Below, in pieces: positions 17,456 through 63,655 of a DNA stretch of 64,000 bases. The notes below the pieces were generated by a model, which was not told the DNA's origin, did not search any database, and saw only the letters and a list, made by a program, of their open reading frames with translations. Position numbers and translations under genes: made by a program. Numbering within the stretch: position 1 is the first letter of the stretch; each line of letters begins with the position of its first letter. Source of the stretch: Stichopus chloronotus (lineage: Eukaryota; Echinodermata; Holothuroidea; Aspidochirotida; Stichopodidae); NCBI GenBank assembly GCA_021234535.1, contig SFZH01000008.1, positions 5,650,897 through 5,714,896 of the forward strand, read 5' to 3'.

Positions 17456-17849
17456 AAAAAAAAAAAAAAACCTGTAATCGCCAGGGATTAAAAGTTGTCG
17501 GAATAAAATATCTAGAACTGTAATTTCTCGGAAAAAAATTGTCTGCAATACATGCAAAATGTTGCGCCAGATTTTGTCTAAGGTTACCTAGTAGTTGAAA
17601 ATTTCCAAAAAAAAACTGTTATCTTAAGAAAATAAAAACTGTTGAACTAACTGACTTTTCTAGAAATTACGACAGCATAAATATTCTACATGAAAGCAAT
17701 CCAAATTATTCCCATTTTTTTTCATAGAATGTTTTCTTACTTGAGAAATTTGCGAGTGTTTCCCACATCCCAACAGTCATAACCTTTGCCCCTGGAGTTT
17801 CCCCTGGACCCCCAACAGACTTTGCCTCCAGGCCCTACAAGGGGTCGTA

Positions 17850-19297: not shown

Positions 19298-20113
19298 TAT
19301 ATCCAGAAGAGTAACTGTGACTCATGTAATACTTGGTGTGTAGGTTGGTCATATTAAGCAGATGATTGCCATTGCTTTTGGTCGAAGTCAAAGGTCATTT
19401 GAGGTCACCAGAGGTCAAACCGTAAAAACCTTTTAAACACAGTATCTCCAGAAGGGTAACTGTGACTGATGTCATACTTGGTGTGTGGATTGAATATAGT
19501 GAGTAGAATACTCCTTTTGATTTTGTTCCAGGACAAAGGTCATTTGAGGTCACCAGAGGTCAAAATGTGAAAACCTTGTAAACACAATATCTGCAGAAGG
19601 GTAACTGTGACTCATGTCATACTTGGTGTGTGGGTTGGTCATGTTAAGTAGATTATTGTTTTTGGTCGAAGTCAATGGTCATTTGAGATCACCAGAAGTG
19701 AAACTGTAAAAATGTGTAAACAATATCTCCAGGAGTCTAACCTTGACTGGTACCATACTTGATGTGTGGATTGTATATACTAAGTAGGAGACTCCTTTTG
19801 TTTGTGGTGGAGGTCAAGGGTCGTTTAAGGTCACCCGAGGTCAAAACTTGCTAACACATTATCTGCAGAAGGACAATGTTGACTGATTGTGTCGGTTGAC
19901 CATACTGGGTAGGTGATCCCTATTGCTTTTGATGGACATCAAATGTCATTTGGGGTCACAAAAATAAAGGTCATTTTGGGTTAAAGGCTTATTAATGTGG
20001 TGTTTCAAGAGCAATAACTGCAGTTGATCTCATACTTGCCATGTGGATAATTCATGTTTGTTATAATATAACAATGTCGCAAGTAGTCATAAAGCCTTTT
20101 GGCACTCTGGTTT
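19298..20113 (+). mobile_element. A1 tandem-repeat element, 5'-truncated
   Basis: Units with AGGTCA-rich cores at about 19388, 19530, 19668 and 19812 (spacing about 140). The 3' terminus is intact: GCAAGTAGTCATAAAGCC tttt GGCACTCTGGTTT at 20079-20113. The 5' hairpin is absent. Confidence 0.75.
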
Positions 20114-22490: not shown

Positions 22491-22934
22491 TAGTATGCAG
22501 TTATGCATGTTCTAACGGATACCTACAGTATCAGTCGTCATCTTAGGTCAGCCGACGTCATTGTACATCTAAATTGATGATATGATACATTACTGTAATA
22601 CTACAATAACCAACCATATTACACTTACTTGCCTAATGCAGTATGTCAGATTCAGGGGGAAAAATCCCCCATAAAGAATTCATCGAAACTACAATGCATT
22701 TGTGCATTCTGGTTGTATATATAAAAATGTGATACATTGTAACAATAAGTAACTTTGTACTCTGTAACATCAAGTATATGGAACACAAAACTGCTTGGAT
22801 AAAGAGTAATTTGTGGCAGACCTGTGGTTAGGGGTCACGGATGTGGTCAACGAATGGCCCGTTCATGCAGCCGGTGCCCTAGGAACCCTCATGCTTAAGT
22901 AGATATGGAGACATGCAAAAGGTTAAATAAAGTA

Positions 22935-24240: not shown

Positions 24241-25863
24241 AACCAGAAAGCCAAGGGGCTTAGTGATTACTTGCCTTTACTATATTTGAATGTCCAGATG
24301 CCCTCCTACGATACTGTGCACCAGAAAAGTTAACTGTTCTAGTTCTAGTGTAATAGTTGAAAATTGAAATTTCACAGAACTTTTCCTAAAATACTCGGAA
24401 AGGTTTGTAATTCATCGCCAATAATTCTGCAACCAGCAAATGATATATTACAGTTAAAATTATATCTTTGAGGTCAGTCCATTACAGAGTGCTACTGACG
24501 CTTTCCTTGGCTGAAAATACACAAAATACAACTACTATCTGATTATATCTCACAAATAAAAAATACTCTCATAGGTAATCTAAACTGACAAATCACTTCT
24601 CTCTATTAAATAAGCTGACATATTCCAATATCTGTTGTTGGATAAAGATCTCTCTGGGATTGATAATACCTGTCTCAGTGACCTTAGAGGTCAATGGTCA
24701 CTTATCAGCTAGAAAAATTTTTTCTGTATGGGAGGGATTGTATCTTAGTAAAGCACAATAAAAAACCAATTGTTTGTCTTTTGGGAATTTTGTACTTGTA
24801 ACTATCAAAATAGCTCACTAAATAGTAATAGATTTATAACAAGAGGATGCAAAAGGTTTGTATTGCTTCCTGTTGTGCATTGCATTAAAAGTCATAGAAT
24901 TAAAATTTACTAGGCCAAAAATACTAACTAGATTTTATAAAACATATCAAGTATTATTGGTCTTTGCCAGCTGGTTACACCAAATACTTGTATACCCGCT
25001 AATACAGTAGTAGAGGAGAGTAAAAGTACCTGCTGAGAGCTAACATTTTGCACTTCTAGATCCTCAAATAATCTTCAATTAACACCAAAACCAAACCCCA
25101 AAGAGGTTATGCGCTGCACCTTACCCCACCTGTAAAGTGAAGGGTTACTTCCCCTTTGAAAGAAGGTGTTCAAAAGCTTATCACTGTCCAACTTCTGATG
25201 TCCCCGTATGACCTTTGACCTCAAAAAACCTCCACAATCTTATTTACATAGAAGGAAGTACACGTCCTCCAAGTTTGAAGTCTATGGAAAATGTTTTCCT
25301 GAGATACTTCAGAGATGGTTGTCTACATTCTGCCTACTGGTGACCTCAAGATGACCTTTGACCTGCACCAAAAACAATCCCAGCCGAGACTTTTATATGT
25401 CCTCCCCAAGCACCAACTTTGATCTGTCTTGCACCTTTCCCTCAAAAGTTTGAGCGCTAACGGACATTCACAGGCTTTTCACACTATGGCCTCTGATCAA
25501 CCCATATGACCTTTGACCTAAAAAATCATCACAATGTTATTTAATTAAAGTGGAGTACATACCCTCCAAGTTTGAAGTTCATGCAACATGTAGTTCCCGA
25601 GATATTTCAAACTTACTTCGTCTGCATACCGGCTGCTGGTGACCTCATATGACCTTTGACCCACACAAAAAACAATCCCAGCCGAGATCTTTATATGATC
25701 TACCCACACACCAACTTTCACCTATCTTGTACCTTCCCTTCAAAAACTGGGGTGCTAACGAGATTGTCGTTACACACACACGCACACGCACACATACGCA
25801 CACACAAACACCGAACCCAAGTCACCATCACATAGATTCCTTGCCTGCCTTCGGCAAGGAGTC
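24241..25863 (-). mobile_element. A1 composite tandem-repeat element, complete
   Basis: 5' hairpin at right (25835-25863, gattccttgcc / ggcaaggagtc), then a CA/TG tract (25771-25810). Units carry TGACCTTTGACCT at 25209-25221, 25352-25364 and 25507-25519. The 3' terminus is AACCAGAAAGCC aagg GGCTTAGTGATTACTTGCC at 24241-24270 on +. Non-coding. Confidence 0.85.
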
Positions 25864-40300: not shown

Positions 40301-43300
40301 TTTTTGAACAGTGTAACACTTGTTGACCTTTACAACACATGGTAATACAATATACATCATTAAATACTCAATCGATGTTACTACAAGTGGAGGGTAAATT
40401 GTAAACTGTTAACGTCCCACTTAGGTGACTATGAAATGGGGCAAAACAAAATTCTTGAAATTTTGTGATAAAGCAGGTGTTTTATGCTTATTTCAATTAG
40501 GGCCCCAAACTGCCAAAATGCCATTTGGCAAGTGCTTTTAATTTTTACCAGCCCACAAAAGTACAAAAAAAAAATAAATTTGCCTATTTTGGCATTTAAA
40601 ACAAAAACTGGCAACTGTGACTACAACAATAGGTAGGCAGGAACACTCAGTGGAAGAGAAGATTTCCCGCACTGATGGTGCTATGAATTGTGACAAAAGG
40701 GGACACTTTTACGTCAGTGTATTGACGGCATTAATAATAACAATGTCATTCACGTCAGTAGGGCTTAACCGATAATTGGATCGGACATCGGATCGGGCCG
40801 ATATTCGACTATATCGGTAAAACATCGGATTGGTTAATTTTGCCCAAGCTCGCCTTCCGATGTTTGCCGATGTTGAACACTGGAGATTTGTGGGTAGTTA
40901 CTTTAGGTTTAAATTTTGATCAATTCTAAAGTATTACCAGAACATGCAGACTTCACTAAAACCAATGCAAACATAATCACAAAATCTTGAGATTAATTTC
41001 GCCCACACCAGCTCGATTTCAATTGAAACAGAATTACTTTTCTTTCAGCCCGACTCTATGTGTGACGGCCAGCATTTTGTGTAAACAGTAGCTAGCCTGC
41101 ATAGCCCACATCTACGTAGGTACGGCTGTACTTAGGGAAGTTCGGATACTAGTCACAATGATACAATGTAACGCACGCACAGGGCCGATAGTGACTATGA
41201 CAAGCGGCCCCATATATTTTAATGTTTTGTTTTTACTCGTTTACTGAATGTATATATTCATCGATTACTTGAAAGAATAAATGTGAAGGCAATGTACATC
41301 TATGTAGACATAGCTCGAGAGGTGATAGATGCCCGATCGCACTGTGATACAGTGTAAAGTTACTTGAAAACGTGTTGATAGCGAAAACATCGGATCGGAT
41401 ATCGGCCGATGTTGTGGAAAAAACATCGGACATCGGATTGGCAGTAAAAACCGCTTCGGTTAGGCCCAACACGTCAGTACATAAGTTGGATTGGGAATTT
41501 CCTTCATTCATGATCAAAAGCAAAGTTCTGCCTGCCACTGGCATTTTAAATTCATGATTGGCTGTCGAAATCACGGGAAGTAAAGTCAACGAATCGATTT
41601 ATGAACTCGTACACAATGTCATTCACTTCAAGGCTGTCAGTCATTTCACATTTTGGTCTTGAGGGCTGGGAATAAACAGCTTGCTCAACCTGGAACTGAG
41701 TTGGCGAACAACAGGTGAAAATTCCTTATGTAGTACAGTGACTCGCTGGCTTCGAACGACAAAAGCACTGTACAATGCACATACAGTAGTGTGCTTATAT
41801 CATGAAAATTACGTTGGTTTTGTATATAAGTGGCAATAACAGAGAATTGGTATTCTGGAGATATTATAACTAGCAAGACAAGTTTTCAATGATTTTATGT
41901 GACAAAATAATTTGTAAGTAATGCGCAGTAATCAAATCACTTGACTTAAGAATTTCTAGGCCACAAATGGCAAGTGGATATGTTGACAAATGATTGCATT
42001 GGCAAAAAGTTGGTAGCCAATTTAGTTGCTGTATACAGTACTGCTCTCAAACCCTGCTGAAGCTGCACAAATGAAACTTTTTGCTTTGCTGTTTTATGGT
42101 TTTTGGTTCCTTGCGTCAGCTAAGGAACCTATGCAGTCAGGTTGGCCTGTGTGTGTGCGTGTGTGCGTGTGTGTGAGGGTGTGTGTGTGTGTGTGCATCT
42201 GTGACACTTGCTTAGGAACGCTCTAGCTCAATAGGGGAAAGTCCGATGAAAGTCAAACTTGGTATGTAGGTTTGCCGTGTTGAGAAGGTGTGCCCTATTG
42301 TTTTTGGTGGAGGTCAAAGGTCATTTGGGGGAACTGGGGGCAAAAGTCCTGTTTTGCTTGGGTACGCTGTAACTCAATAGGGGAAAGTCAGATGAAAGTC
42401 AAACTTGGTATGTAGGTTTGCCATATTGAGAAGGTGTGCCCTATCGTTTTTGGTGGAGGTCAAAGGTCATCTGGGGGAACTGGGGGCAAAAGTTTGTTTT
42501 GCTTAGGTATGCTCTAACTCAATAGGGGAAAGTCAGATGAAAATCAAATTTGGTATGTAGGTTCGCCGTATAGAGAAGGTGTGCCCTATCGTTTTTGGTG
42601 AAGGCCGGAGGTCATCTGGGGGAACTGGGGGCAAAGTCTGAAAACCCTTTTATGCTATGGATGCTCATATGTTCCATCAGTCCCCCTCCAGTGCATCATG
42701 GAAGTACTGCTTGAGTTAGCAGTTTCTTGATCAAATGAAAAAGAAGCAGTGTTGTTGGCACTACTGTAGGTGGTCACACCAGACAAGTTTTGGCTGGATC
42801 AGTTTACCTCCTCGTGCCTGAGTGCTAATGTGTGGGTTCATGTAAGTGTCTTTTCAATTAGTGAGGTGAGCAGGACACAATGAAAGAAAATAAGTCAGTT
42901 GGTGTTCTTACCAGTTTAAACTCGACCCCAGTTGTTCCCTCCAGGGCATTCTATCAGTTTATTGGACTTGAAAGGGGCATAGATGAGATAAGCCATATTG
43001 CAATCTGCAGAGCCCCTTCTTTAAATGAGAAATGCACAGCTCTTTGTGTTTTGTAAAATGAATGGGATATTGCTGTATACTGCAGTTCAACATCTGCAAT
43101 TCATTGCATTAATTGAAATGTCTTTTTTATTTAGGAACTCAGGCATATCATTTTACAGTATGTATATTTCAAGTGCAAGGAACCATAGTGCCCATAGGCT
43201 GTTGTGAAATCATGCAAAATATTTCTTCTCTTACAGATTGTATGTAACACTGTTGGTAGTTGGTCACATTAGTGCTATGGAAATGGTTCCATGTGGGTAC

Positions 43301-46300
43301 ATATTTGTCATGTTTGGGGTCCAGTATTTGTCATGTTTGGGGTCCAGGGTCTGAAATGGGCCATTTTATAAAAGCATGAAATATGTTTCTCTCTCTACAG
43401 ATTTTATGTAATGCAGTGAGAGTTCATGGTCAGAAATGGGCCGTATGGACTATCGTACAAAATAATGCAATATGCTCCCTTTTGCTTTATAATTTACATT
43501 ATATGCTCTCCATCTGTGCAAGGAACCAGAGTGCCCTTGGGCTCTTGTTCAGCTCATACCAGCAAGCTGGTGTGAGCTTATGCGATCTGTCTATTGGTCT
43601 GTTTGTCTGTCTGTCCACTGTCCACAATTGTTCAAAATGCTTCTTCTCCTACATGCTTTCATGGATTTGTTTGAAACTTACACACAATGTTCCTTGGGTG
43701 GTGGCCCATTAGTGGTGTTCAGGAATTGTGGGCACAAGGTCCCACGTGGGCCCTTTGGCCCATTTTATGAAATTTGGCAAAATGCTTCTCCTTCAGATTC
43801 TCTTGTTAATGGTTTGTCATAATGATACACCATAAATGGTGCTTGCAGGGTGTTCAGGAATTTTGGGTCCAAGGTCCCACGTAGACACTTTGGCCCATTT
43901 TATGAAATTCTGCAAAACCCTTCTCCTTCTACAGATTCACTTATACCATGTTGATGGTTTGTCATAATGATACTCTGTCAGTGGTACCTTCAGGGTGTTC
44001 AGGAATTTAGGGTCCAAGGTCCCATGTGAGCCTTTTGGCCCATTTTATGAAATTCTGTAAAATGCTTCTTTTCTTACATGCTTACATTAATTTGTTTTAA
44101 ACTTGGACGCAATGTTCGTTGGTGGTGGACCATGTGGGGCATTCAGGAAGGGTCAAATGGTTTCAGTGTTTCTTTAGCAGAAGGATAAACAGTAAGTCAT
44201 TGCCTCATTTAAAGTGCTTTTTTGTGCTAGGATGAGGCACCAACTTTTAAAAGGTGAAGAATGTAAATTATCCCACTCCAGCTTCACCCAAACATGTTGT
44301 TTCAAGTTAAGTTGATTCTTGAGAACCATTCCAAGGTGATTTTAAATGAGATGGTTGTCTCAGCAATTATGCTTCCAGTTTTGATGGTTAAAGTGTTGCA
44401 ATTCATCAAAGTATTCCCACTGCCAAAGATGGTAAATGCAGATTTTTATATCCTCCCTATACATGTAGTGCATGGGAATATTGTAGTTTCTTGATGGTTA
44501 GAGCGCGTTGTTTTTCCCCTCCTTTGCCACAGCAATCTTTGCTATGGCAACATACTGTATGGTTGATTTTGGTACATGTGGGATCTAAAATGGGATGGTA
44601 CCTAAGGTTGCCAGGGACACCCCATTATGGCTAAAGGCCAAAAACTTGTGTGAGGATGTGTGTGTTTGAGAGTGCATGTATGTGTAAAAAAAATTACACT
44701 TTCAAAAGTTTGTGTCTGTAACGCCACGACGGCAGTGTCCGTGAAGGTCACAAGTTGCCCCATGGCCTGCATTTATGTACATCCCAATAAAATCTTAGGT
44801 CAAAGGTCAAATTAGTGAAAAATCTTTTGCCAGCTATATTTTTCTATCCAAAATGGATATATTTTCATGAAATTGTCAAATATATTGCTGGTATTCAAGG
44901 TTTTTACTACAAATCATGTCTCTATACATATGTTCTGAGACCAAAGGTGAAAGTCAGGGGATAAATGTCAAAGTTGACAGGGAAAATTTGTATCCCCTTC
45001 TCCTCCAAAACTGCAGTGTTGATGAAGGTCAATTATTTTCAAGGTCAACTTTTTTTTCTTATTTATTGAATAGTATCCACAAATTGAAACGAAAGAGAAA
45101 CATATATATATACCTACATACATTCATTCATATATAGGTATACATACGTACAGCATTAAATTGTTAGTTCATGCATATATCACATGGATAAGGCTAGTTA
45201 TATTTTAAACTTGTGAGTATTACATGGAGAGTGCAAGTTCCCACTACAACCAAACCTTGTTGTTGTAACTGACTTAGCTGACATATTTCTCTACCTTCAA
45301 AAGATCTCTTAGTTTACCAAGAAGAGAATTGAAGGTGGGTCTTGCAGACTTCAGTCTTCATTTATAGATGTGATTTTTAAATATGATGGCTACAGTATGT
45401 AACTTAGTGCCCAGATGTCTATGTTGTTGCCATGATATCCTAAAATTAGACATTTGTTAGAGTAGTTAAAAAATCTTTGACAGTTGACCTTTCGTTCAAA
45501 AATAAAATTGACTATTTAATTGCTTAATTACAGGGCATGTACAAAATAGGTGTAAAATTGTCTCATTTTCTTGCTTACAAAATGTGCAAAGATCATTATT
45601 TTTGAGACCAATACGATACAGTAATACATTTGTACATAAAGTGTTAACAATCTGATATTGGAACCATTTTAATGTAACACAGTATTATATTGAAAGGTCA
45701 AGTTGTTATAGAATTTCCAAACCTCACTGGAAGGAGATGTATTAAGCATATCATTCCATTTGTCTCTTACAGAGATGTGTGAAGTGACAAAGCCTTTCAC
45801 AATAACATCATAAAATTCCCTACAGCCGCTATCAGACTTAAAGGGAAATAAGGCGTTTGTTTTACAGGAAACATCCATACTTTTGAAACCAATGTTTGTG
45901 GACGCAGAATGATAGATTATTCAAAATAAGGAAGGACAGTGGCCTTCTTTTCAAGAAATAAGCTCCTCACCGATAGAAATTCAGTTATTTGTTGCTCAAC
46001 ACTAATTTGTTCACTGAAACTTTTCAAAATTCAAATGATGCATCTTCCGTTACTCATCACATGCATTATGTTTTGAGGAGATGAAGCTTTGGCAGATGTT
46101 TATTGATGAGACCGAATGGTTTAACAAGGATTAAAGCTATTTCATTTGTATGTCATGTTGGTGTATTCTAAACGCCCTATTTCCCTTTAAGTCAAATTCC
46201 ATGTTTTGGAGGCCTTATAGGCATGGGGGATTCTTGACAAATTTGGAAGGAGTGATTGCCTGAAAGAATAGATCTTCGAAGACCCCAAAATGTAAGAAAA

Positions 46301-49300: not shown

Positions 49301-52300
49301 AAACTGAATGTTTCAGTTACTATAGAGTCTAGAGAGAATCTGCTCTTAATCATAGATTTTTTTTAGTTGTGCTATTGGACATAGTGTACAGTGTAGTTCA
49401 CATGTGTACTGTACAAAGATCATGTCACACTGACCATCTCATCTTTGATCTTCTATTTACACACAATGTCCTTCTCTTGCTTCCTTAATTCCTCTTAATG
49501 CCCCTCAAATTCTGCATTTTTCAGATGGACATCAAATGTGTTCATATTCGCGCACTTTACAACAACCACTTCTCATGCTTTTGTCCTGTACTGCTCATTG
49601 TTTCAAGAACCAGAACCACATCTTTTATTATCTTAAGTTTTTTTTAGAGAAACACAGAAAAATGTTAGTACAGCTTTAAATTACGGTGAACTGAATATGG
49701 GTATGTCTCACATTTACAAGTACTTACTCAGTGTGTTGGGAGTGGCACTTCTGATCCTGTATCAAAGTTGTCCAGTATTGATAGCTGTGATTTGCTTTGT
49801 CTATGGTTCTGGGTGTCCTTCTGCAAATTAGTACAGTTCTAGTTTTCATTTAGGTAAAGGGTGTTTACTGCTGATGCAGTTCATTACCTATATTTCTTTT
49901 TTTTTCAAGCTAAAAATGTTTTGTAATGTGTGAAGCACAAGTCCAGCCATGTGACAGTGATTGCTGTAAAGCTATATGGAAGATTAATTACTCCTAAACT
50001 GTACCAGCAAACATTTTGTTGATTGTATAGTGAGTGTTGAGTTCTGATAGCTAGTTCTTGTCAGTTGTTATGGTGCTGAATTATACCAGCATGTTTCCAG
50101 TCCTTTTTCAACAAGTATTTAAAGTATACTTAAATGGCTGTTACAGTGAATTCTAAACCCTGTGAACTATCGTAAGGCTGACAGTATCTGATTCCTTGAC
50201 TTTGCCACACCATTTTCCTTGTTAGCTGTTTTTTTTCCTATTCAGGTCATCAAAGTAAGTTCTTGGAATTTTGTGATCATATGTTGAGACCTAATGGACA
50301 ATACTTCATATGTGGGCATGCTACAGTCAGTTACATGTTTAACTCTCTCAAAATATTTCACTTCAAAGACATTGACCACAGTGTTTCTCTGAAACTCTTT
50401 GTGTTGCTTTCTAACTGATGGTTTGTGCAATGAGGTAGTAAGATCTATATTCCAGTATCAGTTCCCCAACTTTTGAATGAGTTTCTACTGTCTAAAAAAT
50501 CACTTGGCCAGCCAAAAAAGCAGAAGGAATACCATGCAATGATGTTGTTGTGTGTGTGTGTGGTATTTTTTGGTGCTGATGCCTTGTGGTATGCAGTTCA
50601 GGTTTGGTATGTATGTTGTTGCTTGATAAGTTGATAGCCCCTGTTTGATTCAACAGAGGTTATAGAATATTTTAGGTAAAGAAAGGCATATGTCTGAAAA
50701 CCCTACAAGCAGTATCTCATTGACTGAATATTGTATTACCTTCATATAATATATTGGCAGCCAAATTGACTAGATAGTTAATAAGTTTTCATGGTGGTTA
50801 ATGGTCATGTCAGGTCACATGTCAGATTTTAACAATATCTCCATTAAGTAAAAGTTCAAACTTGATATGTATGTAATATTCATTTAGTGCAGTATTTGAT
50901 TTGTATTGTTTCACAATAGTCATTTGAGGTCACCAGAGGAGACCACATGAAAACATTGTCAAAGTGGAATCTCAATAAAGTGAAAGTTGCATGAAAGTTG
51001 CATGGTTTGTAGGTAGCAGTCAGCAAGTATTCATTTCTATGGAGGTCAAAGATCAACAATAGTCCAAATTTAAAAGCAATGCAAACTAATGTCTCTATAT
51101 GTGGAAGTTGCATGAACTTCAAACTATTGTGTAAGAAGCCTATTTTATTTAGTACTGTAGATAATGGCTAAAATTTTACATGAAGGGTCAGGTTAAAACA
51201 AGTCAAAGTCATCATTTAGATTACTTTGGGAGGGGGGTCAATCTTAGTTTGTAGCAAAACCCACGGTGTGTTAAATTTTTATTGAGATCAGAATGTCATT
51301 TGTTTTAACATAGGACAAAAACTAAAATCATTTCTGATTCCTTGCCGAAGGCAGGCAAGGAATCTATGCGATGGTGTGTGGGTATGTGACGCCGTGGCTT
51401 GTAAACACGATATCTCAAGAAGGGAATGGTGCTCGAATTGCAGTGTTGGTGTGTTGGTAGTCCATCATGACTAGATGACCCCTATTGGTTATTGTGGAGG
51501 TCAAAGGTCATTTGAGGTCATCAGAGCTTATAGTACGAAAAACCTATCAAGGGAGACATTGTAGCATCCAGATGTTGTTGGAACTTCAAACCCTTATCAT
51601 TGGTAGCAACTGATGAGAAGATGATGCCTGCCATTTTTTGTGAGTTCAGTAGAGGACATTGTTTGAAAACCTTATCAACACCATATCCCAAGAAGGGAAA
51701 GGTTCTCCAGTATCAAACTTGGTGTGTTGGTAGTCCGTGGTAAGTAAATGATCCCTATTGTTTTTCATGGAGGTAAAAGGTCATTTGAGGTCACTAGAGA
51801 TAAAGTGAGAAAACATATTAAAGGAGATATCTCAACTACTCAGCGTTGCTGGAACTTCAACTCTTACCATTGGTAGCACCTAGTGAGTAGATGATGTCAG
51901 TCATTTTTCATTGAGGTCATGGGTCATGTGGTCTCAATAGAAGACATAGTGTGGAAACCTTGTAAACATAGTACCTCGAGAAGGGAAAGGTGCTTGAAGT
52001 TGGTGTGTTGGTAGTTCACTGTGAGTGCATGGTCCCTATTCTTTTTCATGGAAATCAAAGGTCATTTGAAGTCTCCAGAGCTAAAGGTATGAAAAGCTAT
52101 TAAGGTAGATATCTCAGCAACTGAATTCAGGTAGAACTTCAAAGTGTCAGCATTGTTAGCACTTGATGAGCAGCTCATGTCTGTGGTTTGAATTGCCCCA
52201 TGGGAGACTTGTCATCACTGTAATGTGACGTGGAATGAGTGCAATAAGTTCTATCAGTCCAAAGATCTGTCCTGGGTTCAAAAGCCCAACATGTAAGAGT

Positions 52301-55300
52301 TTTAAATGTCCTGAATGTGAACATATGAAGAGGTTAAATTCATCATATTAGGAAAATAATGCATATTTATTTCCTATTGAAATTTGCCAAAATGTTGATC
52401 TATGTTTCAGAAACTCCCTCTCAAGATGTACAAAGTACTTTGTTGCTTTAGTTGCAGTAAACACTCCCTTGGGAGGCAAGACTGTTGCAGATTGCCTTTG
52501 TTGACTTGCACAATCTCAGGTCTGTAACCTCAATTTGATGTCATGAACTTCTATCAACTTTTGAATTACCTCCTTCATGACCACAATTGTCATCAATGCT
52601 GAGTGAAGGACTTTTCTCATTCATATTAGCACTCGGTAACATCAAACCCATAAGTGATACAGAATGTGGTTGTCATTCTTGCATTTTGTTTTTTATTTTG
52701 ATATGGTCCCTCCCCTTCTTCACTGGGTTGCTTTGATGTTTTTTCTCATTGTGTGTGCATGAAAAATAAGATATTGGCAAGGAATTACAAAGTCATTTGA
52801 CTTTCTGGTTAACTAATATCTTCATAGTTAATGTAGGCATTGTGGTAGGTGTATATTTGAGTAATGTGTATTATGTACTAAGTCCTTTCAGGTTTTCATT
52901 CATGTCAAGCTTTTTTTATGTCGGTAGGGGTGAAGTTTGAAATCTGTCAGCATTAGTTCCATTTCAAATTTCCTACATGTGTAGCCATTTATGACTAGAT
53001 GAGTTTTGTCCATGCTCATGAAGGTCAAAATTCACTTAAGGTCATCAAAGGTAACAGTCAGGGTAAGTTGATTACTTGAGATTGAAGAACAACCACAAAC
53101 TTGCATATGCAAACCTGCACACACCAGTTAATTGTGCTAGACTTTTGTATTTCTGGTCAGCAGTTGGGAAACTTGGAGAAGCTTCATCTCCACTTCTGCA
53201 GGCGTTTGTCATTTGTGGCAAGAAGTAAAAATGTCCTAACTTAAAAACTATAAGGAAGAGAGTGAGGAGGGGGAAATGAGAGAAAGAGTTGACAGGCTTG
53301 TTTTTTTAAAACACATGCTTGTCATCTGACACACATTCACACTCACCATAGTACTAACTTTTCCATTATGGACTGTTATGCCTTTGAACAGGTTTTGACA
53401 TTGTTCAGATTGTAATAAGCTTTAATTCTTTGGAAATATACAGCATCTGAATACTGAATTTGTTACTCTCAACTTGTGCACTGAAGGTTGCAAAAGATGT
53501 TATTATTGTTTGATGTTAGGTCTTCCATTTATCAGTCTCTACTCTTAAGTGGACTGACCTTGATTGTGTAAAACAACTCCATTCCATGAAGCAGTTCCCA
53601 TTATCTGTGGCAGGTGATGTCCTGTGCTGCATTTATTGTGTTACATAATTAGTTATTGCAGTTTTCTAATTGTATTATGACCGAGACTGGCGGTTTCATT
53701 TGCATGTTACCATCTTGTTGTATTCACTTGGTGTTATAAACCTGTCCAAGAATTCAAAGTATTATCATGTGAATCAATGTTCAGCATAAACTTTGCCACC
53801 TTGTGACTTTTATCATAGAAAGATAATACATAAGATTAGTAAATGCACACACTTGGTTTTCTGCATGTCCTTTGTCACAGTACAGGCTCTATTACAGTAC
53901 AGGTTTATTGCAATGACCTAATAGCGGCCCGCCTGGAGATTGTTCATCGCACCCATCGCCAGGGTTCGTCTATTGTTACAACTGAGGTTTCACTGCATTT
54001 CTATTCCGCAACATAAGCTGCTTAAAGTTTGTGGTTGTCACTTCAGTTGTTGAGGCAGGAAGTTCAAATACTTCCAAGAGAATGTGATGACTGATTAGTT
54101 GAAGTAATAACAAGTACAAAACAATTGGTTGAGCAGTAATTGCCTCACAGAAGGACCCTCAACTCTTTTCAGAGTTCTTTCTAAGATAAAGTAGAATTGC
54201 CATACACCAACAATATGTACATAGCTTGTTAGGCACCGTTAGTAAGTAACGTTGACTGTAGTGCAGCCTGTAGACTGGCCAATAGCACTAACTGTAATAT
54301 ATGCCCAGTGATTTCACTGATCTGGGGCACCAGATCAATGATGCACATTTGATGGACAAAAACCTCTGGAGTCAAAACTGTTGCAAAGCTTTTCATTTGA
54401 CCATTCTATCAGCCAACTAGATGCAGCACATTTGCTAATACATCAATTAGGCACCGGACAGAACTTAAAATCAAAACGAGTGCACATGTGAAGGTGTGAA
54501 AACGTATCACAAATATTACTTTGTATAGATATTCAAGTGCTTTGGTTTCAGACTTTGTGAACATAAGACTAGGCTAAGACAAACGTACGCCAGCCTAACA
54601 TGAGCAGAAGGAGATGTCACATAAGATATCAGCAATTCAAGTGCTACATTGCTAATCTCAGCACACGATGTCTGTGGCATCAAATGAATTCGAAACACTG
54701 TGCTAGCATTTCACACAGAGATTTTATCAGTTTGTGTACATATTTGGTTGGTAGATACTATCCCCTGTTCAAGCAAGCAAGCTTGATCATCAAGTGTGTC
54801 CAAAAAAAGTTTTGGTGAACAAAGTCAAAAGATTTACATGCCATGTGGAAAAGACCTTAAACTAATAATCTGCATACATTTACAAACATAAATTAAAAGG
54901 TTTCCTCTTGCTTTTACTCTTATTTTCCTCCACAATGGCTTTGGGACTTTGTGTTGACTATAACATCCCAAATGCATAGTAAGACAGTAGCCTAACCAAC
55001 ATGTGATGGCATATTTTATGTCAAAAGTACGTACATTGAACTTAAGTAGCCTGTCTGAAAATTATTTCACCATATGTAAGTGTTGTGAGAAACTAAGCAA
55101 ACTCATGACTTAAATCGTATGCAACTGAGACTGGCCAATCTCAATCATGCATTTTCCCATGGACTTAGGTGACGGATGTAAGACATCATAGGCAATCTTA
55201 AAAACGTTCTCTTCAAACGTGACTCCCTGCGCCACCCATGATGATGCCCATCCAAGCCCGATCTGCTGACTAGACTGACCACATGGTTCAAAATGATAGT

Positions 55301-58300: not shown

Positions 58301-61300
58301 CATTATTTAAACAAAACACTGATGTTTGAAAGTAATTTACAGTATATGATTTGGAAGTACAACCTTTTAGTTATAAATAACAACCAAAATGAAAAACAAG
58401 AAGGAGTGAATGTAGCTTATTCAAAGAGTGAAGTCTTTACATTGATGGGACACCACCACCTTTGCTTCACGTTCCACTCATTTACATGTGAACTTCCATT
58501 GCTTAAGACTCAATTTATAGTGGAAAATCCATGGCTCATTCCTCATGTGCCCCACTTTCCCCTCCCCATTTGCATGCTTGTTAATACTTTTTGCAAAATG
58601 TAGAGATCCATAACTTCGTTTGTAGTTTCATGGTGGAATGTTCATCTTTGATTCCTTGTCAAAGGCTGGCAAGAAATCTGTGTGATGGTGTGTGCATGTG
58701 TATTACTGTGTGTGTAGCTGTGTGTGTGTTTCACCATGACTTGTAAATGTGATATATCAAGAAGGAAATGTTGCTTAAGCTTCAAAGTTGGTGTACATTT
58801 AGTCCATTGAGCGTAAAGATGATTGAGAGTAAAGACCAGTTGAGGTCACCAGAGGGTAAAGTCTGAAAATCTATTAAGGAAGTCATAGCCTCAGCAATGT
58901 TGCTTAAACTTCAAAGTCTAAAAATTGCTAGCCCTTAATGAGTATTTGATCTCTGTCAAGTTTTACCACAGTCAAAGGTCATAGGAGGTCATTAGAGTTC
59001 ATACTTTGAAAACCTCAAAAACACAGCATTTCAGTGAGGGAAAGTTGCTTGAACTTCAAATGTTTGTACATTGGTGGTCCATTATGAGTAGATGTTCCCT
59101 GTTCTTATTCAGGTAGGTCAAAGGTCATTTGAGGTTGCCAGAGGAGATCGTTTAAGAACCTGTTATGGAAGATATCTCCGCAATGAATATTGCTTGAACT
59201 TCCAACTGTAAACATTGGCAGCTTTTGATGAGTAGATGATCTCTGTTATGTTTTGAGGACGTCAAAGGTCACATGAGGTCTGTGGAGATTATAATTTGGA
59301 AACCTTGTAAACACAGTATCTCTAGAAGGGAAAGTTGCTGCAACCTCAAACTTAAGTGAATAGTTTGTTCATTGTTTTTTTATAAATATTCGCAAGGGAT
59401 CACAAAGTCCTTGGTCTTCCTGGTTTTCTTTGAACACTGTGTAATGTGAAGGCCTGCCTTTCTTTTCCCTTTCACAGAATGACTGGAAGATTAAACTGGA
59501 TCATGTAGCATCATTGTTTATGAACCTGAATGGTGCAAGAGGTATGTGTATATTCTTTAAAGATCACTATTTAGAATAAACACCCCCCACCCCCACATTC
59601 TTTTGTGAAGTACAATTATTATGTATTGGACTATTGAAAGTGTACGGTGAATGCCCCAAATAAGGAACAACGTTAATCCTTAGACAAGTCTATGCTCAAG
59701 GACATACTGAAATGACCAGGTATGCTATAGAATCAAGGAATCAAATAGCCTGTTAAAATTGGAGGCCAATAGTAGATCTTTAACAGCAGCAGTTTGCAAT
59801 TATTTTGAAAACTTTTGACTGATACAGTAACCGTGATCCATCCCCAACCCCCTCCCCATCCAAGCCATTGCTTGATTTGTTACAGTATACTTCTCTGGCA
59901 GTAGTCATTGTATGTGTCAGCAATGTCAATGTCTGGGAGATGACTTGTGGCATGTATGTGTGAATGTATGTTTGTTTGTGATGCCTACATTGTAAACACG
60001 TAATCTCAAAGAAGGACAAATCTGAAAGGTGTACCTTTCTGAGTACAAGAGGCCTGTAGGAGGTCAAAGGTCATTTGCTGTCATTAGGGGTCAAATTGTA
60101 AATCCCCTGTAAACAATATCTCAAGAAGTTTGATCTGATCTCATAGTTTGTGTATTTGTGTGCCACAAAGAGTATTATTGAATGTCAAAGATCATTTGAG
60201 GTCAGCAGATCTCAAAATACAAAGCTTGTGAACAAACATATTATCTTAAAAAAGTGAACTTAGACTGAACTCATATTCGTATGCAGGTGTACCATTTTGG
60301 GTTTAAGAACTCTAAAGGTTTTGGTAGATGTCAAAGGTTATTTCAGTTAATCATGCATCAACTTACCAAAACCTTTTAAACACAATATGTCATCAAGGTA
60401 AGCTTTGGCTTGGCTCATATGTAATATGAAGGTGTGCCACAATGAAAGTAAGAAGTCCATCATTAGTGGTCATTTGAGGTGACTGGGGTCAATATTCAAG
60501 GACCTTGTAAACATAATCTGAAGAAGAGAATGTTGGACTGATTTCACATATGATATGTAAGTGCACTACACTTTTTGCAAGCTAGAAACTTTAATTGATG
60601 TAGTTCACCACTCATTTTGAGGTTAGCAAAAATCAAATACAAAACCTTGTAAACAAATGTGGTATGTTCAAAAAGGAAGCTCTGACTGAACTCATATTTT
60701 TGTATGCAGGTGTACCACATGGGATACAAGAACCCTACACTTTTCGGTTTCGATGAAATGGCAGCATTTGTAATTATGCAGGTGTATGTAGGTGTGTGTG
60801 TGTGTTTGTGACACCTACATAGTAAACATGATAACTCAAGAAGGGAAGCTTGTACATATCTCATATTTGATAGGTGTGTAAACCTTATTGAGGGCAAGAA
60901 GCCTGTTTATTGTGAAGCTTAAAGATCATTTGGGATCAGCAGGTGTCAAATAGTGAAAACATTGTAAACACACTATCTCAAGAAGGGAAACTTGGACATA
61001 TCTCATATTTGGTATGTGGGTAAGCTCTATAAGAATCCTATTGTTTTTGGTGGAAGTCATAGGTCATTTGGGGTCAACAGGAATCAGATGGTGAAAACCT
61101 TGTGAGCACAATATCGCAAGATACAAAACTTTGACTGATCTCATTTTAGGTTGTGTGTGAGCCTTATTGAGTACAAGAAGCCTATTGTTTTTGATGGAGG
61201 TCAAACGTCATTTGGGGGGTCAGTTGGGATCAAATAGTAAAAACCTTGTAAACTCAATATCTCTAGAAGAGAAACTTGTGCAGATCTCATATTTAGTATG

Positions 61301-63655
61301 TTGGTGTACCTTAGTAAGGGCAAGAAACCTATTGTTATTGGTGGAGGTCAAAGGTCATTTGGGGTCAATATGAATCAAATAGTGGAAACATTGTAAACAC
61401 AATATCTTAACAAGGGAAACTTGTACAGATTGTATATTTTGTTTGTGGGTAAGCATCATTGAGGACAAGCAGCCTATTGTTGTTGGTGGAGGTCAAAGGT
61501 CACTTGGGGTCAACAGGGGTCAAACAGTGAAAACCTTGTAAACATGATATATCGTGATGAATAAAGATGATGAATTTGTACGGATCTCATATTTGGTATG
61601 TGTGTGTACCTTATTAGGGACAAGAAGTCTACTGTTTTTGGTGGAGGTCAAATATTATTTGGTCTGCAGGTGTGAAATAGGGAAAACCTTGTAAACATGA
61701 TATCTCAAGATGGGAAAATTGTACACATCTCATATGTAGTATGTGAGTAAGTCTTATTGAGGACAAGAAGCCTATCGTTTATGGTGGACTTTAAAGGTCA
61801 TTTGGGGTCAGCAGGGGTCATATTGTGAAAACCTTGTAAACACAATATCTCAAGATAGGAAACTTGTACAGATCTCATATTTTTTGTATGTGGGTGAGCC
61901 TTATTGAGTACAACAAGCCTTGTGTTTTTGGTGAAGGTGAAAGGTCATGTGGGGGTCAATATGGGTCAAGTAGTGAAAGCCTTGTAAACATGATATCTCA
62001 AGGTTGGAAACGTGTACAGATCTTGTACTTACTATGTGGGTGTACCTTATTAAGGACAAGGAGCCAAATGTTTTTTGTGGAGGTCAGAGGTCATGTATAG
62101 GTCGACAGAGTCAAATTGTGAAAACTTTTAAACACAATATCTCAAGAAGGGAAGTTTGTACAGATTGCATTTTTATTACTTGGGTGTATCTGATTGAGCT
62201 TGTACAGATCTCATTTTGGATTTGTAAACGTACTGTATTGCGTGCAATTAGTCTATTGTTTTTGATGGAGGTTGAAGGTCATTTGAGATCAAGAGGAGTT
62301 ACAACAACCCTCTAAACATAATATTTCAAGAAGGAAAGCTTGCACACATTTGATATTTGGTGTGCAGTAGGCCTGCATAAGTATACTGCATTTTGTAATA
62401 AAGATAATGAGTTCTTATGTAGTGGTTAATTCCTTATTGATAGTATGCTCAGAGGGCTGAGGTATACGACCATCCCAGTAATCACATTCCCAAACTTTCT
62501 CTTATTCCATGGAGACTATGACATCATGGCTGCCAGTTAGGCAATCACTCATGAGCTCATCAGCATTAACCCCTGTTTGTCACAAAGTGCCCCTTGGCAC
62601 CCTGCTGAAGTTTCTCCTGGGAGATCCATCTTCTATCAGACGAATACACAGGGAAACCAGAAATTAAATGAGAGTTATTTTTTACGACAGTGCTCCATTT
62701 TTTTGTTTGTTGACAGACCTGTTTTTACATTGTAGTATGATCTGACTTGCTCCCAGCTAGCTCTAGTACTCTTTAATACATTTGTCCAGCTAATACTAAG
62801 GTAGTAAGGAAGTTAGGTTACCTGTGTAAGATATTTCCATCCCTGGACGGTAAGTTCAACCTGGGGTTAGCGTCTCAGTTGTAAAACACAAGGCACTCTG
62901 CAACACTGTTCCACTCTCATAAATGCTGATGCAAGCAAGAGGTCTAACAGATCACATTAGTTTATAATGTATGTGGTAGGACTCATCCAAGAGTTAAATC
63001 CATCACCTCTCGGTTGGGAAGTGAGCTCTTTACCCACTGAGCTAACCATATTCCTGAACTCACGTCAAAGTGGCTGGTTGTACCATATTAAAACATCCCT
63101 ATTTTTTTTTAAGGAGGTCAAAATTTATTATGGATCCAAGATGTGATAACTTTGGAAGGAGGAAGCATGGCCAGTCCTCAGTTTGTAATGTTTGTCATAA
63201 CCCAGGGTAATTGTGATCTTCCAAGTGTTGCTACTCATTACATCAAAGCCCATCATGGAAATCATGATGGTTTCTCTTTGTTAGTATGCAGCCACACACC
63301 AGGGACGTAGCTAAAGTTATAATTGTAGGGGGCCTGTTGCAAGAAGGGGGGCCCACATTGCAAAAACACACTCATTTTTTTAAATATCAGTGTATTTAAC
63401 CCACGAATCAGGTTGCCCAGTCATATTTTTGAGGAGCCTGGGCCCCCTCAGGCCTCCATAGCTAGTCACTGTCACACACCCTTCCTCCCATGCCTTTCCT
63501 ATCCTGTTGTGGACTAGGGGGTTCTCAGCAAACTGAAGTTTAATATTCATTTTGCAGGTGATGTCAAACTTCTCTTTGAGGGCTCGAATAGCATGCTGCA
63601 GAATGTTAGATACCGTACAGTTCCAGCCATTATCCACGGCAATGGTGGGTCAAAG
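34259..63655 (+). CDS. PLOD: Procollagen-lysine 2-oxoglutarate 5-dioxygenase (lysyl hydroxylase), 5' part, seven coding exons; gene continues past the window
   Basis: The coding exons are 34259-34349, 37614-37714, 38120-38256, 38593-38707, 39381-39542, 59478-59541 and 63558-63655. They sum to 768 nt, or 256 codons, with no stop and intron phases 1,0,2,0,0,1,0. Every intron is GT..AG. Lysyl hydroxylases act in the ER on collagen lysines; the C-terminal Fe(II)/2-oxoglutarate domain is not in the window, while the N-terminal domain seen here is glycosyltransferase-like (active as a glycosyltransferase in LH3). Visible family signatures are LLVVTVATEETDGFKRF (res. 36-52), LLFSDSYDVIF (105-115), VFSAESLIWPD (134-144), GYAPYFW (169-175), DKDDDQLFFTK (184-194), LDH and FMNLNGA (210-222), and IIHGNGGSK (248-256). 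D109, D112 and H250 fall at the spacing I recall for the Mn2+-binding D112/D115/H253 of human LH3. D186-D188 match the poly-Asp loop. The symbol is the family name; the paralogue cannot be told. Introns are loaded with transposable elements. Confidence 0.95.
34749..35345 (+). repeat. ACTGCGACTGCGCCTCC minisatellite with an inverted leading copy
   Basis: Copies at about 34804, 34926, 35014, 35124, 35189, 35278 and 35326, mostly followed by cagatgatagaatcagtgga. The first copy forms a hairpin with an inverted copy at 34749-34766 (GAGGCGCAGTCG.. / ..CGACTGCGCCTC). Confidence 0.8.
35998..36042. repeat. Perfect 18-bp hairpin, 9-nt loop
   Basis: agaccagatttttacacc (35998-36015) and its exact inverse (36025-36042). 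Confidence 0.9.
37614..37714 (+). CDS. PLOD: PLOD exon 2: first beta strand of the GT domain
   Basis: The exon is preceded by a long polypyrimidine tract and ctgtag, and followed by gtaagc. It encodes 34 residues beginning DNQYELLVVTVATEETDGF, which aligns with the 'LLVLTVATKETEGFRRF' type of sequence at the mature N-terminus of vertebrate lysyl hydroxylases. Start phase is 1 and end phase 0. Confidence 0.95.
38120..38256 (+). CDS. PLOD: PLOD exon 3: GT domain with first Asp of the D-x-x-D metal motif
   Basis: Bounded by cttcatag-type acceptor sequence (ggttcatag) and gtaaga. It encodes VVGMGTEWRGGDVANWPGG, then HKINLLKEALEEYKDRHD and LILLFSD. The Gly-rich loop followed by 'K..LLK.AL' is typical of the family. 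The last two bases (AG) complete a Ser codon with exon 4, giving DSYD across the junction. Confidence 0.95.
38593..38707 (+). CDS. PLOD: PLOD exon 4: SYDV motif and 'VFSAE..IWPD' segment
   Basis: Starts after cctctttggcag and ends before gtaagt. The encoded text is (S)YDVIFTTGAEEIISKFLEM, then DANLVFSAESLIWPDPSLA. Position 141 is Ile; by my recollection human LH3 has Cys144 here, while LH1/LH2 carry Ile. Confidence 0.95.
39381..39542 (+). CDS. PLOD: PLOD exon 5: poly-Asp loop and GYAP motif
   Basis: 54 codons between ttttcacag and gtaagg. The segment contains a CSG (vertebrates LGSGG), GYAPYFW and DKDDDQLFFTKLYLD. The last 12 nt plus the donor resemble the units of a tandem repeat that follows in intron 5 (see the repeat at 39531-39802). 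Confidence 0.95.
39531..39802 (+). repeat. ~50-bp tandem array starting at the PLOD exon 5 / intron 5 junction
   Basis: Six units begin near 39531, 39583, 39633, 39682, 39730 and 39779 (spacing 47-52 bp). Shared features are (GAT)GCC.CTAGG, then TTGGTAAGG-like, then a run such as CATCATACCCTC and TTTTGGAT. Unit 1 is the last 12 nt of exon 5 plus the functional donor (GGCGG|GTAAGG). Units 2 and 3 keep GGTAAGG/GGTAAAG. Units 4-6 have diverged donors. Confidence 0.75.
39803..40758. other. Intron 5 segment without gene
   Basis: Includes a palindromic ggtaccagtac-rich stretch (39945-40040). No element could be delimited. Confidence 0.35.
40759..41469. mobile_element. 711-bp non-autonomous hAT element with 8-bp target duplication
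   Basis: Flanked by CACGTCAG on both sides (40751-40758 and 41470-41477). Ends are TAGGGCTTAACC and GGTTAGGCCCAA (inverted, 10 of 12). Many ATCGG/CCGAT motifs lie just inside both ends. No coding capacity. 8-bp duplications are the hAT hallmark. Confidence 0.85.
42105..43205 (+). mobile_element. A2 tandem-repeat element
   Basis: 5' hairpin GGTTCCTTGC...GCTAAGGAACC (42105-42129), TG microsatellite (42147-42197), then three units about 146 bp apart. DR1 copies are at 42311-42323 and 42457-42469; the third unit is degenerate. A 3' terminus GCAAGGAACC...GCCcataGGC lies at 43175-43200. Confidence 0.75.
43206..44165 (+). mobile_element. B-family tandem-repeat element(s)
   Basis: Units carry 'gggtccaaggtccca' then 'ttggcccattttatgaaattctgcaaaa' then 'cttctcct.ctacagatt'. 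Inside lie another A2-type 3' end (GCAAGGAACC at 43518-43527 with GCCC tt GGGC) and a new start hairpin AGCTCATACCAGC aa GCTGGTGTGAGCT (43551-43578), followed by a (TGTC)n tract. Confidence 0.65.
44640..45050 (+). repeat. C-family tandem repeat, left part, split by a LINE
   Basis: Starts with a TG tract (44655-44690). Carries AGGTCAAAGGTCA at 44797-44809 and 'aggtgaaagtcagggg' motifs shared with 46520-47290. Stops abruptly near 45050 at a T-run. Confidence 0.6.
45051..46510 (-). pseudogene. L1-like LINE ORF2 3' end, broken
   Basis: The minus strand reads SLTDFLSQSVWNNDLF and ILAFCNQKLYFVNDIFD, and later KSDSGCREFYDVIVKGF with VRDKWNDML. Then come VWKFYNNLTFQYNTVLH, WFQYQIVNTLCTN, YRIGLKNNDLCTFCKQ and ENETILHLFCTCP. 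The C..C...H....C pattern is the RT zinc-binding tail of L1/Tx1-type elements. Stops and a frameshift near 45678 make it a relic. Coding traces cover 45480-46505; the rest to 45051 is probably its 3' UTR. Confidence 0.8.
46520..47290 (+). repeat. C-family tandem repeat, right part
   Basis: Units of about 270 bp with 'aaggtcaaagttggtagatag', 'tccaaaatggctat', 'tctaaaagtcatgttta' and 'gaaagtcaggggtcagaggtca'. A DR1 copy is at 47252-47264. Confidence 0.6.
47291..48679. other. Intron 5 segment without recognised feature
   Basis: A 135-codon open stretch on the minus strand (47441-47848) has no family motif and low-complexity neighbours. I do not regard it as a gene. Confidence 0.35.
48680..48985 (-). 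pseudogene. CR1/L2-like RT scrap, internally deleted
   Basis: The minus strand reads FASGWNDEIATPLLKKTS, then (frame kept) FLSKLVEKL, then LAAIDLSSAFDTI. These correspond to 'P..WK.A.V.PLLKK', 'FLSK..EK' and the RT palm motif 'LDLSAAFDT'. The middle of the domain is missing and stops are present. Confidence 0.65.
48986..50569. other. Intron 5 segment, nothing recognised
   Basis: AT-rich non-coding sequence; no repeat family identified. Confidence 0.35.
50570..51180 (+). repeat. Degenerate A-family units
   Basis: Contains ggtttggtatgtatgttg, aaccctacaagcagtatctc, tttgaggtcaccagagga and atggaggtcaaagatc in array order, strongly diverged. Confidence 0.5.
51336..52812 (+). mobile_element. A1 composite tandem-repeat element, complete
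   Basis: Perfect 11-bp 5' hairpin (51336-51346 / 51354-51364), short TG tract, and units around 51498 (exact DR1 at 51498-51510), 51770 and 52045, arranged as ~272-bp dimers. A non-repeated stretch follows, then the 3' end GGCAAGGAATTACAAAGTC attt GACTTTCTGGTT (52776-52810). Confidence 0.85.
52813..56220. other. Intron 5 segment, no gene
   Basis: Residual aaggtca-type motifs occur near 53020-53055, and a ttcccagggttcgat copy at 55373-55387. Otherwise nothing recognised. Confidence 0.35.
56225..56398. repeat. Inverted minisatellite (GGTTCGATGTTCCCAG / CTGGGAACATCGAACC)
   Basis: The left half repeats ggttyratgttcccag-like units and the right half repeats the reverse complement (gaacatcgaaccctggg), with the switch near 56310. 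Confidence 0.7.
57265..57600 (-). repeat. B-family tandem units
   Basis: Two to three units with 'gcagaatttcataaaatgggcc', 'agggtccacatgggacc' and 'gtacaagagaatctgtaagagga', the inverse of the 43.2-44.2 kb array. A GTCGGA..TCCGAC palindrome lies at the right end (57579-57599). Confidence 0.6.
57601..58649. other. Intron 5 segment, no gene
   Basis: An AT-only-like stretch at 57630-57690 and T homopolymers at about 58052 and 58130. No element defined. Confidence 0.4.
58650..59426 (+). mobile_element. A1 composite tandem-repeat element, short complete copy
   Basis: 5' hairpin gattccttgtc / ggcaagaaatc (58650-58678), TG tract (58681-58730), units with DR1 at 59115-59127 and relatives, and 3' end GCAAGGGATCACAAAGTC...GTCTTCCTGGTT (59392-59425). 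It ends about 51 bp before the PLOD exon 6 acceptor. Confidence 0.8.
59478..59541 (+). CDS. PLOD: PLOD exon 6: short exon after a 19.9-kb intron
   Basis: 64 nt between ccctttcacag and gtatgt, encoding NDWKIKLDHVASLFMNLNGA R(G). This corresponds to the vertebrate '[21 protein letters not shown]' region, directly continuous with exon 5, so no exon is missing in the 19.9-kb intron. A tandem-repeat element ends about 51 bp upstream of the acceptor. Confidence 0.93.
59930..62395 (+). mobile_element. A3 tandem-repeat arrays in PLOD intron 6
   Basis: Two arrays in the same orientation. One runs 59930-60700. The other starts with ggtttcgatgaaatgg and a TG tract (60747-60812) and runs to about 62395. 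In the second, unit cores recur about every 145 bp (near 61053, 61198, 61345, 61490, 61641, 61783 and 61932). Exact DR1 copies are at 60061-60073, 61345-61357 and 61490-61502. Confidence 0.75.
62396..62980. other. Intron 6 segment, no gene
   Basis: Nothing recognised; part may be the body of the SINE to its right. Confidence 0.35.
62981..63051 (-). mobile_element. tRNA-derived SINE head
   Basis: Minus-strand A box TAGCTCAGTGGG (63044-63033) and B box GGATTTAACTC (63001-62991), with gagctcacttcccaacc between. It is tRNA-like in layout but with a decayed B box and stems, so a SINE or tRNA pseudogene rather than a gene. Confidence 0.6.
63300..63471. mobile_element. 172-bp hAT-type MITE
   Basis: Ends CAGGGACGTAGCTA and TAGCTAGTCACTG (inverted, 2 mismatches in 13). 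Flanked by CCACACAC (63292-63299) and TCACACAC (63472-63479), a 7-of-8 match expected for an aged hAT target duplication. Lies 86 bp before PLOD exon 7. Confidence 0.7.
63558..63655 (+). CDS. PLOD: PLOD exon 7: His metal ligand, IIHGNG motif
   Basis: 98 nt between cattttgcag and gtaaga. It encodes (G)DVKLLFEGSNSMLQNVRYR, then TVPAIIHGNGGSK, matching the vertebrate 'TLPVLIHGNGPTK' signature. The His is residue 250 of the reconstructed protein. The exon ends in phase 0 and the next exon lies beyond the window. Confidence 0.95.

What the first reader, a model, noticed from the sequence alone, without database searches (positions are those of the whole stretch)
51336..52812. Composite elements whose two ends share a paired terminal motif, with the pairing conserved across subfamilies
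Complete copies (3149-4664, 24241-25863, 51336-52812, 58650-59426) all read: hairpin GATTCCTTGCC/GGCAAGGAATC, TG microsatellite, ~145-bp tandem units, then GGCAAGGAATC again, a second hairpin (AAAGCC/GGCTTT type) and CTGGTT. The left arm at the 5' end is thus an inverted copy of the 3' motif. Subfamily A2 (42105; 43175; 43518; 17432) uses GGTTCCTTGC at the left and GCAAGGAACC at the right. The same AT-to-GG change is seen at both ends, as expected if one protein must recognise both. 5' flanks end in T runs and 3' ends read CTGGTT, compatible with Helentron-type insertion at TT. The architecture resembles DINE/MINE/pearl elements; assignment to Helentrons is inference.
Basis: partly seen in the sequence, partly recalled or inferred. 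Interest (0 to 1): 0.8.

Follow-up and report, generated by a model that had tools for sequence, protein, structure and literature searches.

The report
Helentron-type elements with matched ends
Several copies of a protein-less mobile element of the rolling-circle type, each with one short motif repeated in inverted form near its two ends, sit in this DNA; the architecture is already known from flies, mites and oysters, so these are new members of a known kind.

Summary
Four family A copies (3150-4664, 24241-25863, 51336-52810, 58650-59425) have the described layout. A2 has one complete copy (42105-43549): right motif at 43518 (11 of 11), imperfect stem, terminus CTTGTT. A2 differs from A by one base per arm, not 'AT to GG'; the proposed end at 43175 is doubtful and 17457 has no right end. 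I add an independent family B (20926-22714): an unrelated left motif, GGTTTCGATGAAATC, again matched in inverted form at the right end (13 of 15), with the same CTGGTT. Of 400 random places clear of the elements, 1 gave a pair of 10 or more of 11; four of the six complete elements do. The 3' hairpin shows three two-sided changes among six right ends. The structure matches Helentron-associated interspersed elements (HINE/DINE-1, PMC4067079; oyster Cg_HINE, PMC7492417), and the oyster paper already reports element-specific changes in both flanks. Empty sites and a coding partner could not be tested: the genome search did not complete. Verdict: new member of a known kind, low to moderate interest. 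One modest point: elements sharing a core unit and terminus carry unrelated, yet internally matched, end motifs.

The parts
51336..51364 (+). Family A left end: subTIR GATTCCTTGCC plus complementary arm GGCAAGGAATC (hairpin)
   Evidence: z -5.8
51398..52184 (+). tandem units of ~145 bp in the 51336 element
52776..52786 (+). right subTIR GGCAAGGAATT, 10 of 11 match to the inverted left motif
52789..52804 (+). 3' hairpin AAAGTC/GACTTT
   Evidence: (12 of 200 shuffles as good)
52805..52810 (+). CTGGTT terminus
58650..59425 (+). Family A copy, decayed: 8 of 11 or 9 of 11 in another register; 3' stem not predicted
3150..4664 (-). Family A copy; right terminus CTGGTT at 3155-3150, where homology with 19298-20112 ends
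24241..25863 (-). Family A copy (9 of 11)
20926..22714 (+).
42105..43549 (+). A2 copy: left hairpin, TG microsatellite, units to 42650, right motif GCAAGGAACCA at 43518-43528, imperfect 7-bp stem, terminus CTTGTT (43544-43549). A second exact motif at 43175 is doubtful
19298..20112 (+). Family A array with a right end only; ends at CTGGTT
2147..2172 (-). Family A left end; no right end found, and the window ends about 767 bases after its array
60746..62364 (+). Family B left end and array; candidate right end at 63236 (12 of 15, hairpin, ATGGTT) is at chance level and was not accepted by the stricter test
5645..5665 (-). Family B left-end relic followed by a TG stretch
17210..17457 (-). A2 left end and unit; no right end found

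Best explanation
These are non-autonomous elements of the Helitron2/Helentron type (HINE or DINE-1 like). Shown here: in six copies from families A (4), A2 (1) and B (1) a short motif at the left end, itself part of a hairpin, recurs in inverted form near the right end, followed by a second (sometimes imperfect) hairpin and CTGGTT or CTTGTT; between them lie a TG-rich stretch and ~145-bp tandem units in one fixed orientation. Inferred: a Rep/helicase made by an autonomous relative elsewhere in the genome recognises the motif at both ends, nicks at the T-rich left border, displaces one strand, stops at the 3' hairpin, and the strand is inserted at a TT. The tandem units are passengers that expand during copying. 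The motif stays matched at family level because one protein must bind both ends; single dead copies then mutate freely.
For: Own-end matches 8-10 of 11 in the 4 A copies and B; A against B only 5-7. A and B left motifs are no more alike than random sites (6 of 11; 952 of 5000 do as well), so B is independent. Full B right-end signature: 1 in the window, 0 in 100 simulated windows at a looser 4-mismatch limit. Pair search: 6 of 11 arrays from the real left end, four of them with 10-11 of 11; 1 of 400 random clear places reaches 10. 3' hairpin: 3 of 6 stem pairs with a two-sided change, 86% of cells paired against 17-44% when slid; 10 of 500 shuffles reach the covariation score (5 A and 1 B). 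CTGGTT in those 6 of 6, though two were found by a search that included it. T in at least 4 of the last 5 bases before 10 of 10 left ends. Same layout in print.
Against: No Rep/helicase gene seen: no stop-to-stop frame of 150 aa or more, frames open at the window ends not listed; the motif scan gave GLPHVH at 23724 and a loose string at 14760, not followed up; only 4 peptides were put to Pfam, 3 of them from the 71 frames. No empty site for 5 joined flanks, searched in the window only (two joined one base late). Copy 58650 has TCTTT near both junctions, which could be read as a duplication. The right-end stem is not predicted in full in 20112 and 59425 and the A2 stem is weak (z -0.32); the other four have 5-15 of 200 shuffles as good. 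The number of further pair types is not unusual (86 of 500). One search does not separate A from A2: cross pairs score 8-10 too. 5 of 11 arrays give no clear pair.
Confidence: 0.85

Rival explanations
1. Helitron2 proper (no endonuclease) rather than Helentron is the partner. Both belong to one clade with asymmetric inverted repeats and hairpins at the ends. This is a rival within the best explanation, not against it.
For: Termini do not separate the two; Helitron2 is reported to insert between TTTT and T or C, Helentrons in TT. 8 of 10 left flanks end in three or more T.
Against: In the passages read, non-autonomous families with microsatellite and 140-180 bp units are assigned to Helentrons.
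Confidence: 0.3
2. MITE-like cut-and-paste elements with short inverted repeats.
For: Inverted repeats at both ends; some authors classed DINE-like elements as MITEs. One copy (58650) has TCTTT near both junctions.
Against: Asymmetric ends: the right motif starts about 32-39 bases inside the 3' end and is followed by a hairpin. The longest words shared near the junctions are 3-5 bases and differ among the five copies tested.
Confidence: 0.06
3. Dispersed satellite arrays; the end motifs are only homologous flanks inherited from one ancestor, with no functional pairing.
For: Units of A, A2 and B are related; shared descent alone would keep the A ends alike.
Against: Family B has an unrelated motif yet keeps it matched left to right; the A2 base change is found at both ends; the 3' stem shows two-sided changes.
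Confidence: 0.07

Closest known systems
HINE / DINE-1 (Helentron-associated interspersed elements), PMC4067079 (abstract, passages, the Background section and part 1 of 3 of the Results read)
   Same: subTIRs near both ends, IR whose 5' side is nested in the 5' subTIR, microsatellite, central repeats, 3' stem-loop, T-rich target
   Different: Here the 3' hairpin is followed directly by the six terminal bases, a little closer to the end than the 8-35 bp given for mite elements; partner and empty sites not seen here
Cg_HINE of the Pacific oyster, PMC7492417 (passages read)
   Same: subTIR 11-12 bp with complementary IR, microsatellite, 140-180 bp monomers in fixed orientation, right subTIR plus palindrome, element-specific changes in both flanks
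   Different: Microsatellite there mostly of 4-base units, here TG-rich; here related monomers are carried by unrelated end motifs (A against B), a combination not among the three groups named in the passages read
Tsp elements of sea urchin and elements of bivalve molluscs
   Same: Cited as DINE-1-like in PMC4067079; the Tsp paper is not held
   Different: Sequences not compared
Helitron2 / FoHeli of Fusarium, PMC5148889 (abstract and passages read)
   Same: Asymmetric inverted repeats, hairpins at both ends in some groups
   Different: Described there mainly as coding elements with other termini; no 145-bp arrays in the passages read

Membership tests
HINE/DINE-1 (non-autonomous Helentron) | matching subterminal inverted repeats of about 11-15 bp | tested here: met
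   6 of 11 arrays from the real left end, 9-11 of 11; family B 13 of 15; 58650 only 8 of 11 in the main register
HINE/DINE-1 (non-autonomous Helentron) | IR complementary to the 5' subTIR | tested here: met
   7 of 10 left ends fold with 0-7 of 200 shuffles as good; 58650, 60746 and 5665 do not
HINE/DINE-1 (non-autonomous Helentron) | microsatellite after the left end | tested here: met
   TG-rich stretch after 10 of 10 left ends, read by eye; short in 51336
HINE/DINE-1 (non-autonomous Helentron) | central tandem repeats in fixed orientation | tested here: met
   units run in the orientation of the ends in 9 of 9 left ends with units; 5665 has none
HINE/DINE-1 (non-autonomous Helentron) | 3' stem-loop close to the 3' end | tested here: met
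   stem predicted in 4 of 6 A and B right ends (5-15 of 200 shuffles as good), not in full in 20112 and 59425; A2 imperfect and weak; covariation
HINE/DINE-1 (non-autonomous Helentron) | insertion in TT or T-rich DNA without target duplication, shown by empty sites | tested here: inconclusive
   T-rich left flank in 10 of 10, right ends in TT; no empty site in the window
HINE/DINE-1 (non-autonomous Helentron) | autonomous partner with Rep/helicase/endonuclease sharing the ends | not testable with these tools
canonical Helitron (Helitron1) | 5' TC, 3' CTRR, insertion between A and T (as given) | tested here: not met
   right ends read CTGGTT or CTTGTT; left ends T-rich then GATTCC, GGTTCC or GGTTTC

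The most novel reading that the evidence does not exclude
Elements that share one core unit, one post-microsatellite segment and one 3' terminus (hairpin plus CTGGTT) have exchanged the whole recognition motif at three places at once (left arm, its complementary arm, right copy) between families A and B. The recognition motif would then be a replaceable cassette that follows the partner protein, so that one passenger core can be driven by different Rep proteins.
Probability: 0.35. Interest if true: 0.45.

Novelty: new member of a known kind. Interest (0 to 1): 0.25.

Why it matters
The families give a natural test of which bases a Helentron-type Rep must see at both ends: the motif changed by one base (A to A2) or wholesale (A to B) yet stayed matched, while the 3' hairpin kept its stem in most copies and the terminus hardly changed. 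With a whole genome this predicts which autonomous element drives each family. The complete elements also carry about 3 to 11 matches each to a unit that holds a DR1-like sequence.

Tried and rejected
Special conservation of AGGTCAAAGGTCA in the unit: it looked the most conserved 13-mer when units were collected through it. When units were collected through another block, the 15 best windows listed all came from that block. The first result was an ascertainment effect, so I drop the claim. (The anchor also has 2-10 chance hits in simulated windows, against 48 in the window.)

Dismissing A2: my first reading, was that A2 fails. On checking, that test forbade the tail to overlap the stem. With overlap allowed, 42105 pairs with 43518 at 11 of 11, so I count A2 as supported by one copy; 43175 stays doubtful.

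3' terminus in viral contigs: 2 exact matches, both without the right-end motif next to them and without the DR1-like sequence; dropped.

Rfam: 0 matches at gathering scores. Pfam on 4 peptides: only the PLOD piece matched, just under its cut-off. PDB: no match for that piece.

Stem plus CTGGTT-like tail alone is not specific: 33 hits in the window against 13-33 in 10 simulated windows.

The organism was not identified; a PLOD-like exon suggests an animal.

Papers: I ran eight text searches and saw listings only, apart from the three papers named with PMC numbers in Closest known systems.
Full report
What is there. The sequence at 51336-52810 reads: T-rich flank, GATTCCTTGCC, 7-base loop, GGCAAGGAATC, a TG-rich stretch, ~145-bp units, GGCAAGGAATT, hairpin AAAGTC/GACTTT, CTGGTT. 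Three more family A copies have both ends (58650-59425, 4664-3150, 25863-24241), one has only the right end (19298-20112), one only the left (2172). The 3' boundary is supported by comparison: the 80% match between 19298-20112 and 3975-3150 stops exactly at CTGGTT in both; the match of the left ends 4664 and 2172 starts in the T-run, 5 bases before GATTCC.

A second, unrelated family. Looking at what precedes the other TG stretches gave left ends GGTTTCGATGAAATC (with 0-1 mismatch) at 20926, 60746 and 5665. It does: GAATTCATCGAAACT at 22676 (13 of 15), then a perfect 6-bp hairpin AATGCA/TGCATT and CTGGTT. The left motifs of A and B are no more alike than chance: 6 of 11, reached by 952 of 5000 random sites. 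Own pairs of A and B score 8-10 of 11, pairs between A and B 5-7; pairs between A and A2 score 8-10, so that table does not separate A from A2. The full B signature was met 0 times in 100 simulated windows. For 58650 alone the motif match (8 of 11) is at chance level: 1.8 such sites expected per 1500 bases, real elements counted in.

How general it is. I searched 11 arrays for an inverted pair with T-rich left flank, stem and CTGGTT-like tail. In the first form 5 gave the pair from their real left end; 7 of 200 random places (+ strand, not kept clear of the elements) gave some pair. With the tail allowed to overlap the stem, 6 did, with best scores 11 (4664), 11 (20926), 11 (42105), 10 (51336), 9 (58650) and 9 (25863). 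60746 gave three pairs, all 9s and two of them not from its left end, which is chance level. 17457, 20112, 2172 and 59953 gave none; 20112 has no left end, and the window ends about 767 bases after the array of 2172. Of 400 random places clear of the elements, both strands, 27 gave 9 or more and 1 gave 10 or more.

The A2 case. A2 left ends (42105, 17457) differ from A by one base in each arm (A to G, T to C), not by 'AT to GG'. For 42105 the right motif GCAAGGAACCA at 43518 matches 11 of 11 and carries the same change. It is followed by a 7-bp stem with one mismatch and CTTGTT, one base off CTGGTT. The stem is weak as a fold (z -0.22 with the motif, -0.32 without). The other proposed end, 43175, stands where a different ~140-bp unit has GGTCCAAGGTCCCA (by eye); its fold is z 0.13 or -1.05.

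The 3' hairpin. Across six right ends (5 A, 1 B) three of six stem pairs have a change on both sides, and 86% of cells pair, against 17-44% when the partner is slid by 1 to 3 columns; 10 of 500 shuffles reach the covariation score, 14 of 500 the percentage paired, 86 of 500 the number of further pair types. Six sequences are few, the structure was taken from them, and two have no full stem. CTGGTT is unchanged in all six, but 20112 and 59425 were found by a search that included it.

Insertion site. T makes up at least 4 of the last 5 bases before all 10 left ends; 8 of 10 end in three or more T. The longest words shared near the two junctions of the five copies tested are CTAA, TCTTT, ATG, GCT and TTGT: no consistent duplication, though TCTTT in 58650 could be read as one. 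No empty site was found in the window. Insertion at TT without duplication is compatible, not shown.

Comparison with what is known. PMC4067079 gives for mite HINEs 12-15 bp subTIRs and a 3' palindrome, for DINE-1 13 bp subTIRs, an IR nested in the 5' subTIR, a microsatellite, central repeats and a 3' stem-loop, with TT targets; families are defined there by at least 11 bp identical subTIRs. PMC7492417 gives for oyster Cg_HINE: 11-12 bp subTIR with IR, microsatellite, monomers predominantly 140-180 bp in fixed orientation, right subTIR plus palindrome, and element-specific changes in both flanks including subTIR, IR and stem-loop. PMC5148889 places Helentrons with Helitron2 and reports evidence for joined-end forms in Fusarium. 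The elements here belong to a known kind. Whether the partner is a Helentron or a Helitron2 cannot be told.

What may be new. In the oyster passages that I read, elements are alike throughout, or alike in flanks with different monomers, or different throughout. Here families A and B share monomers (about 65-80% identity in the matches) and the 3' terminus, but not the recognition motif. That suggests that the motif was replaced at its three positions together. Slow divergence with a fast-changing partner would look the same; I could not separate the two.

Corrections of my own. The unit contains AGGTCAAAGGTCA, recalled as a DR1 nuclear-receptor site: 14 exact sites in the window, 31 with at most one mismatch, against a mean of 0 and 0 in 20 simulated windows (not all sites lie in these units). 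I first took it as the most conserved part; one search showed this to be an effect of how the units were collected. Presence stands; special conservation does not. I also first judged A2 unsupported; one search reversed that for one copy. My odds for the main reading did not change.

Noticed in passing
window 43550-44150, also 17190-16780 (-) and 57553-57275 (-): A second ~140-bp unit type (GGTCCAAGGTCCCA ... GGCCCATTTTATGAAAT). At 43551-43578 a hairpin AGCTCATACCAGC/GCTGGTGTGAGCT followed by TATGCGAT and a TCTG repeat looks like the left end of a further family; it starts directly after the TT that ends the A2 copy at 43549. No matching right end was found.
   Followed up: partly
window 44797-47252 (+): Another region with AGGTCAAAGGTCA-like sites and AGTGAAAATC, with related pieces about 280 bp apart.
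   Followed up: no
units throughout, e.g. 51498, 4352 (-), 61345: DR1-like AGGTCAAAGGTCA, often with TTTGAGGTCA after it: 25 sites with at most 3 mismatches to the 23-mer, 0 in 100 shuffles. The DR1 name is recalled, not from a call.
   Followed up: partly
window about 63555-63655 (+): Peptide matching the PLOD glycosyltransferase domain (PF25342, E 7.2e-6, 25.8 bits against a cut-off of 27), so probably an animal gene exon.
   Followed up: partly
window 32775-32974: Perfect tandem duplication of 99 bp.
   Followed up: no
window 17863-19180 and 28059-29354: Two copies of a 1.3-kb repeat, 88% identical.
   Followed up: no
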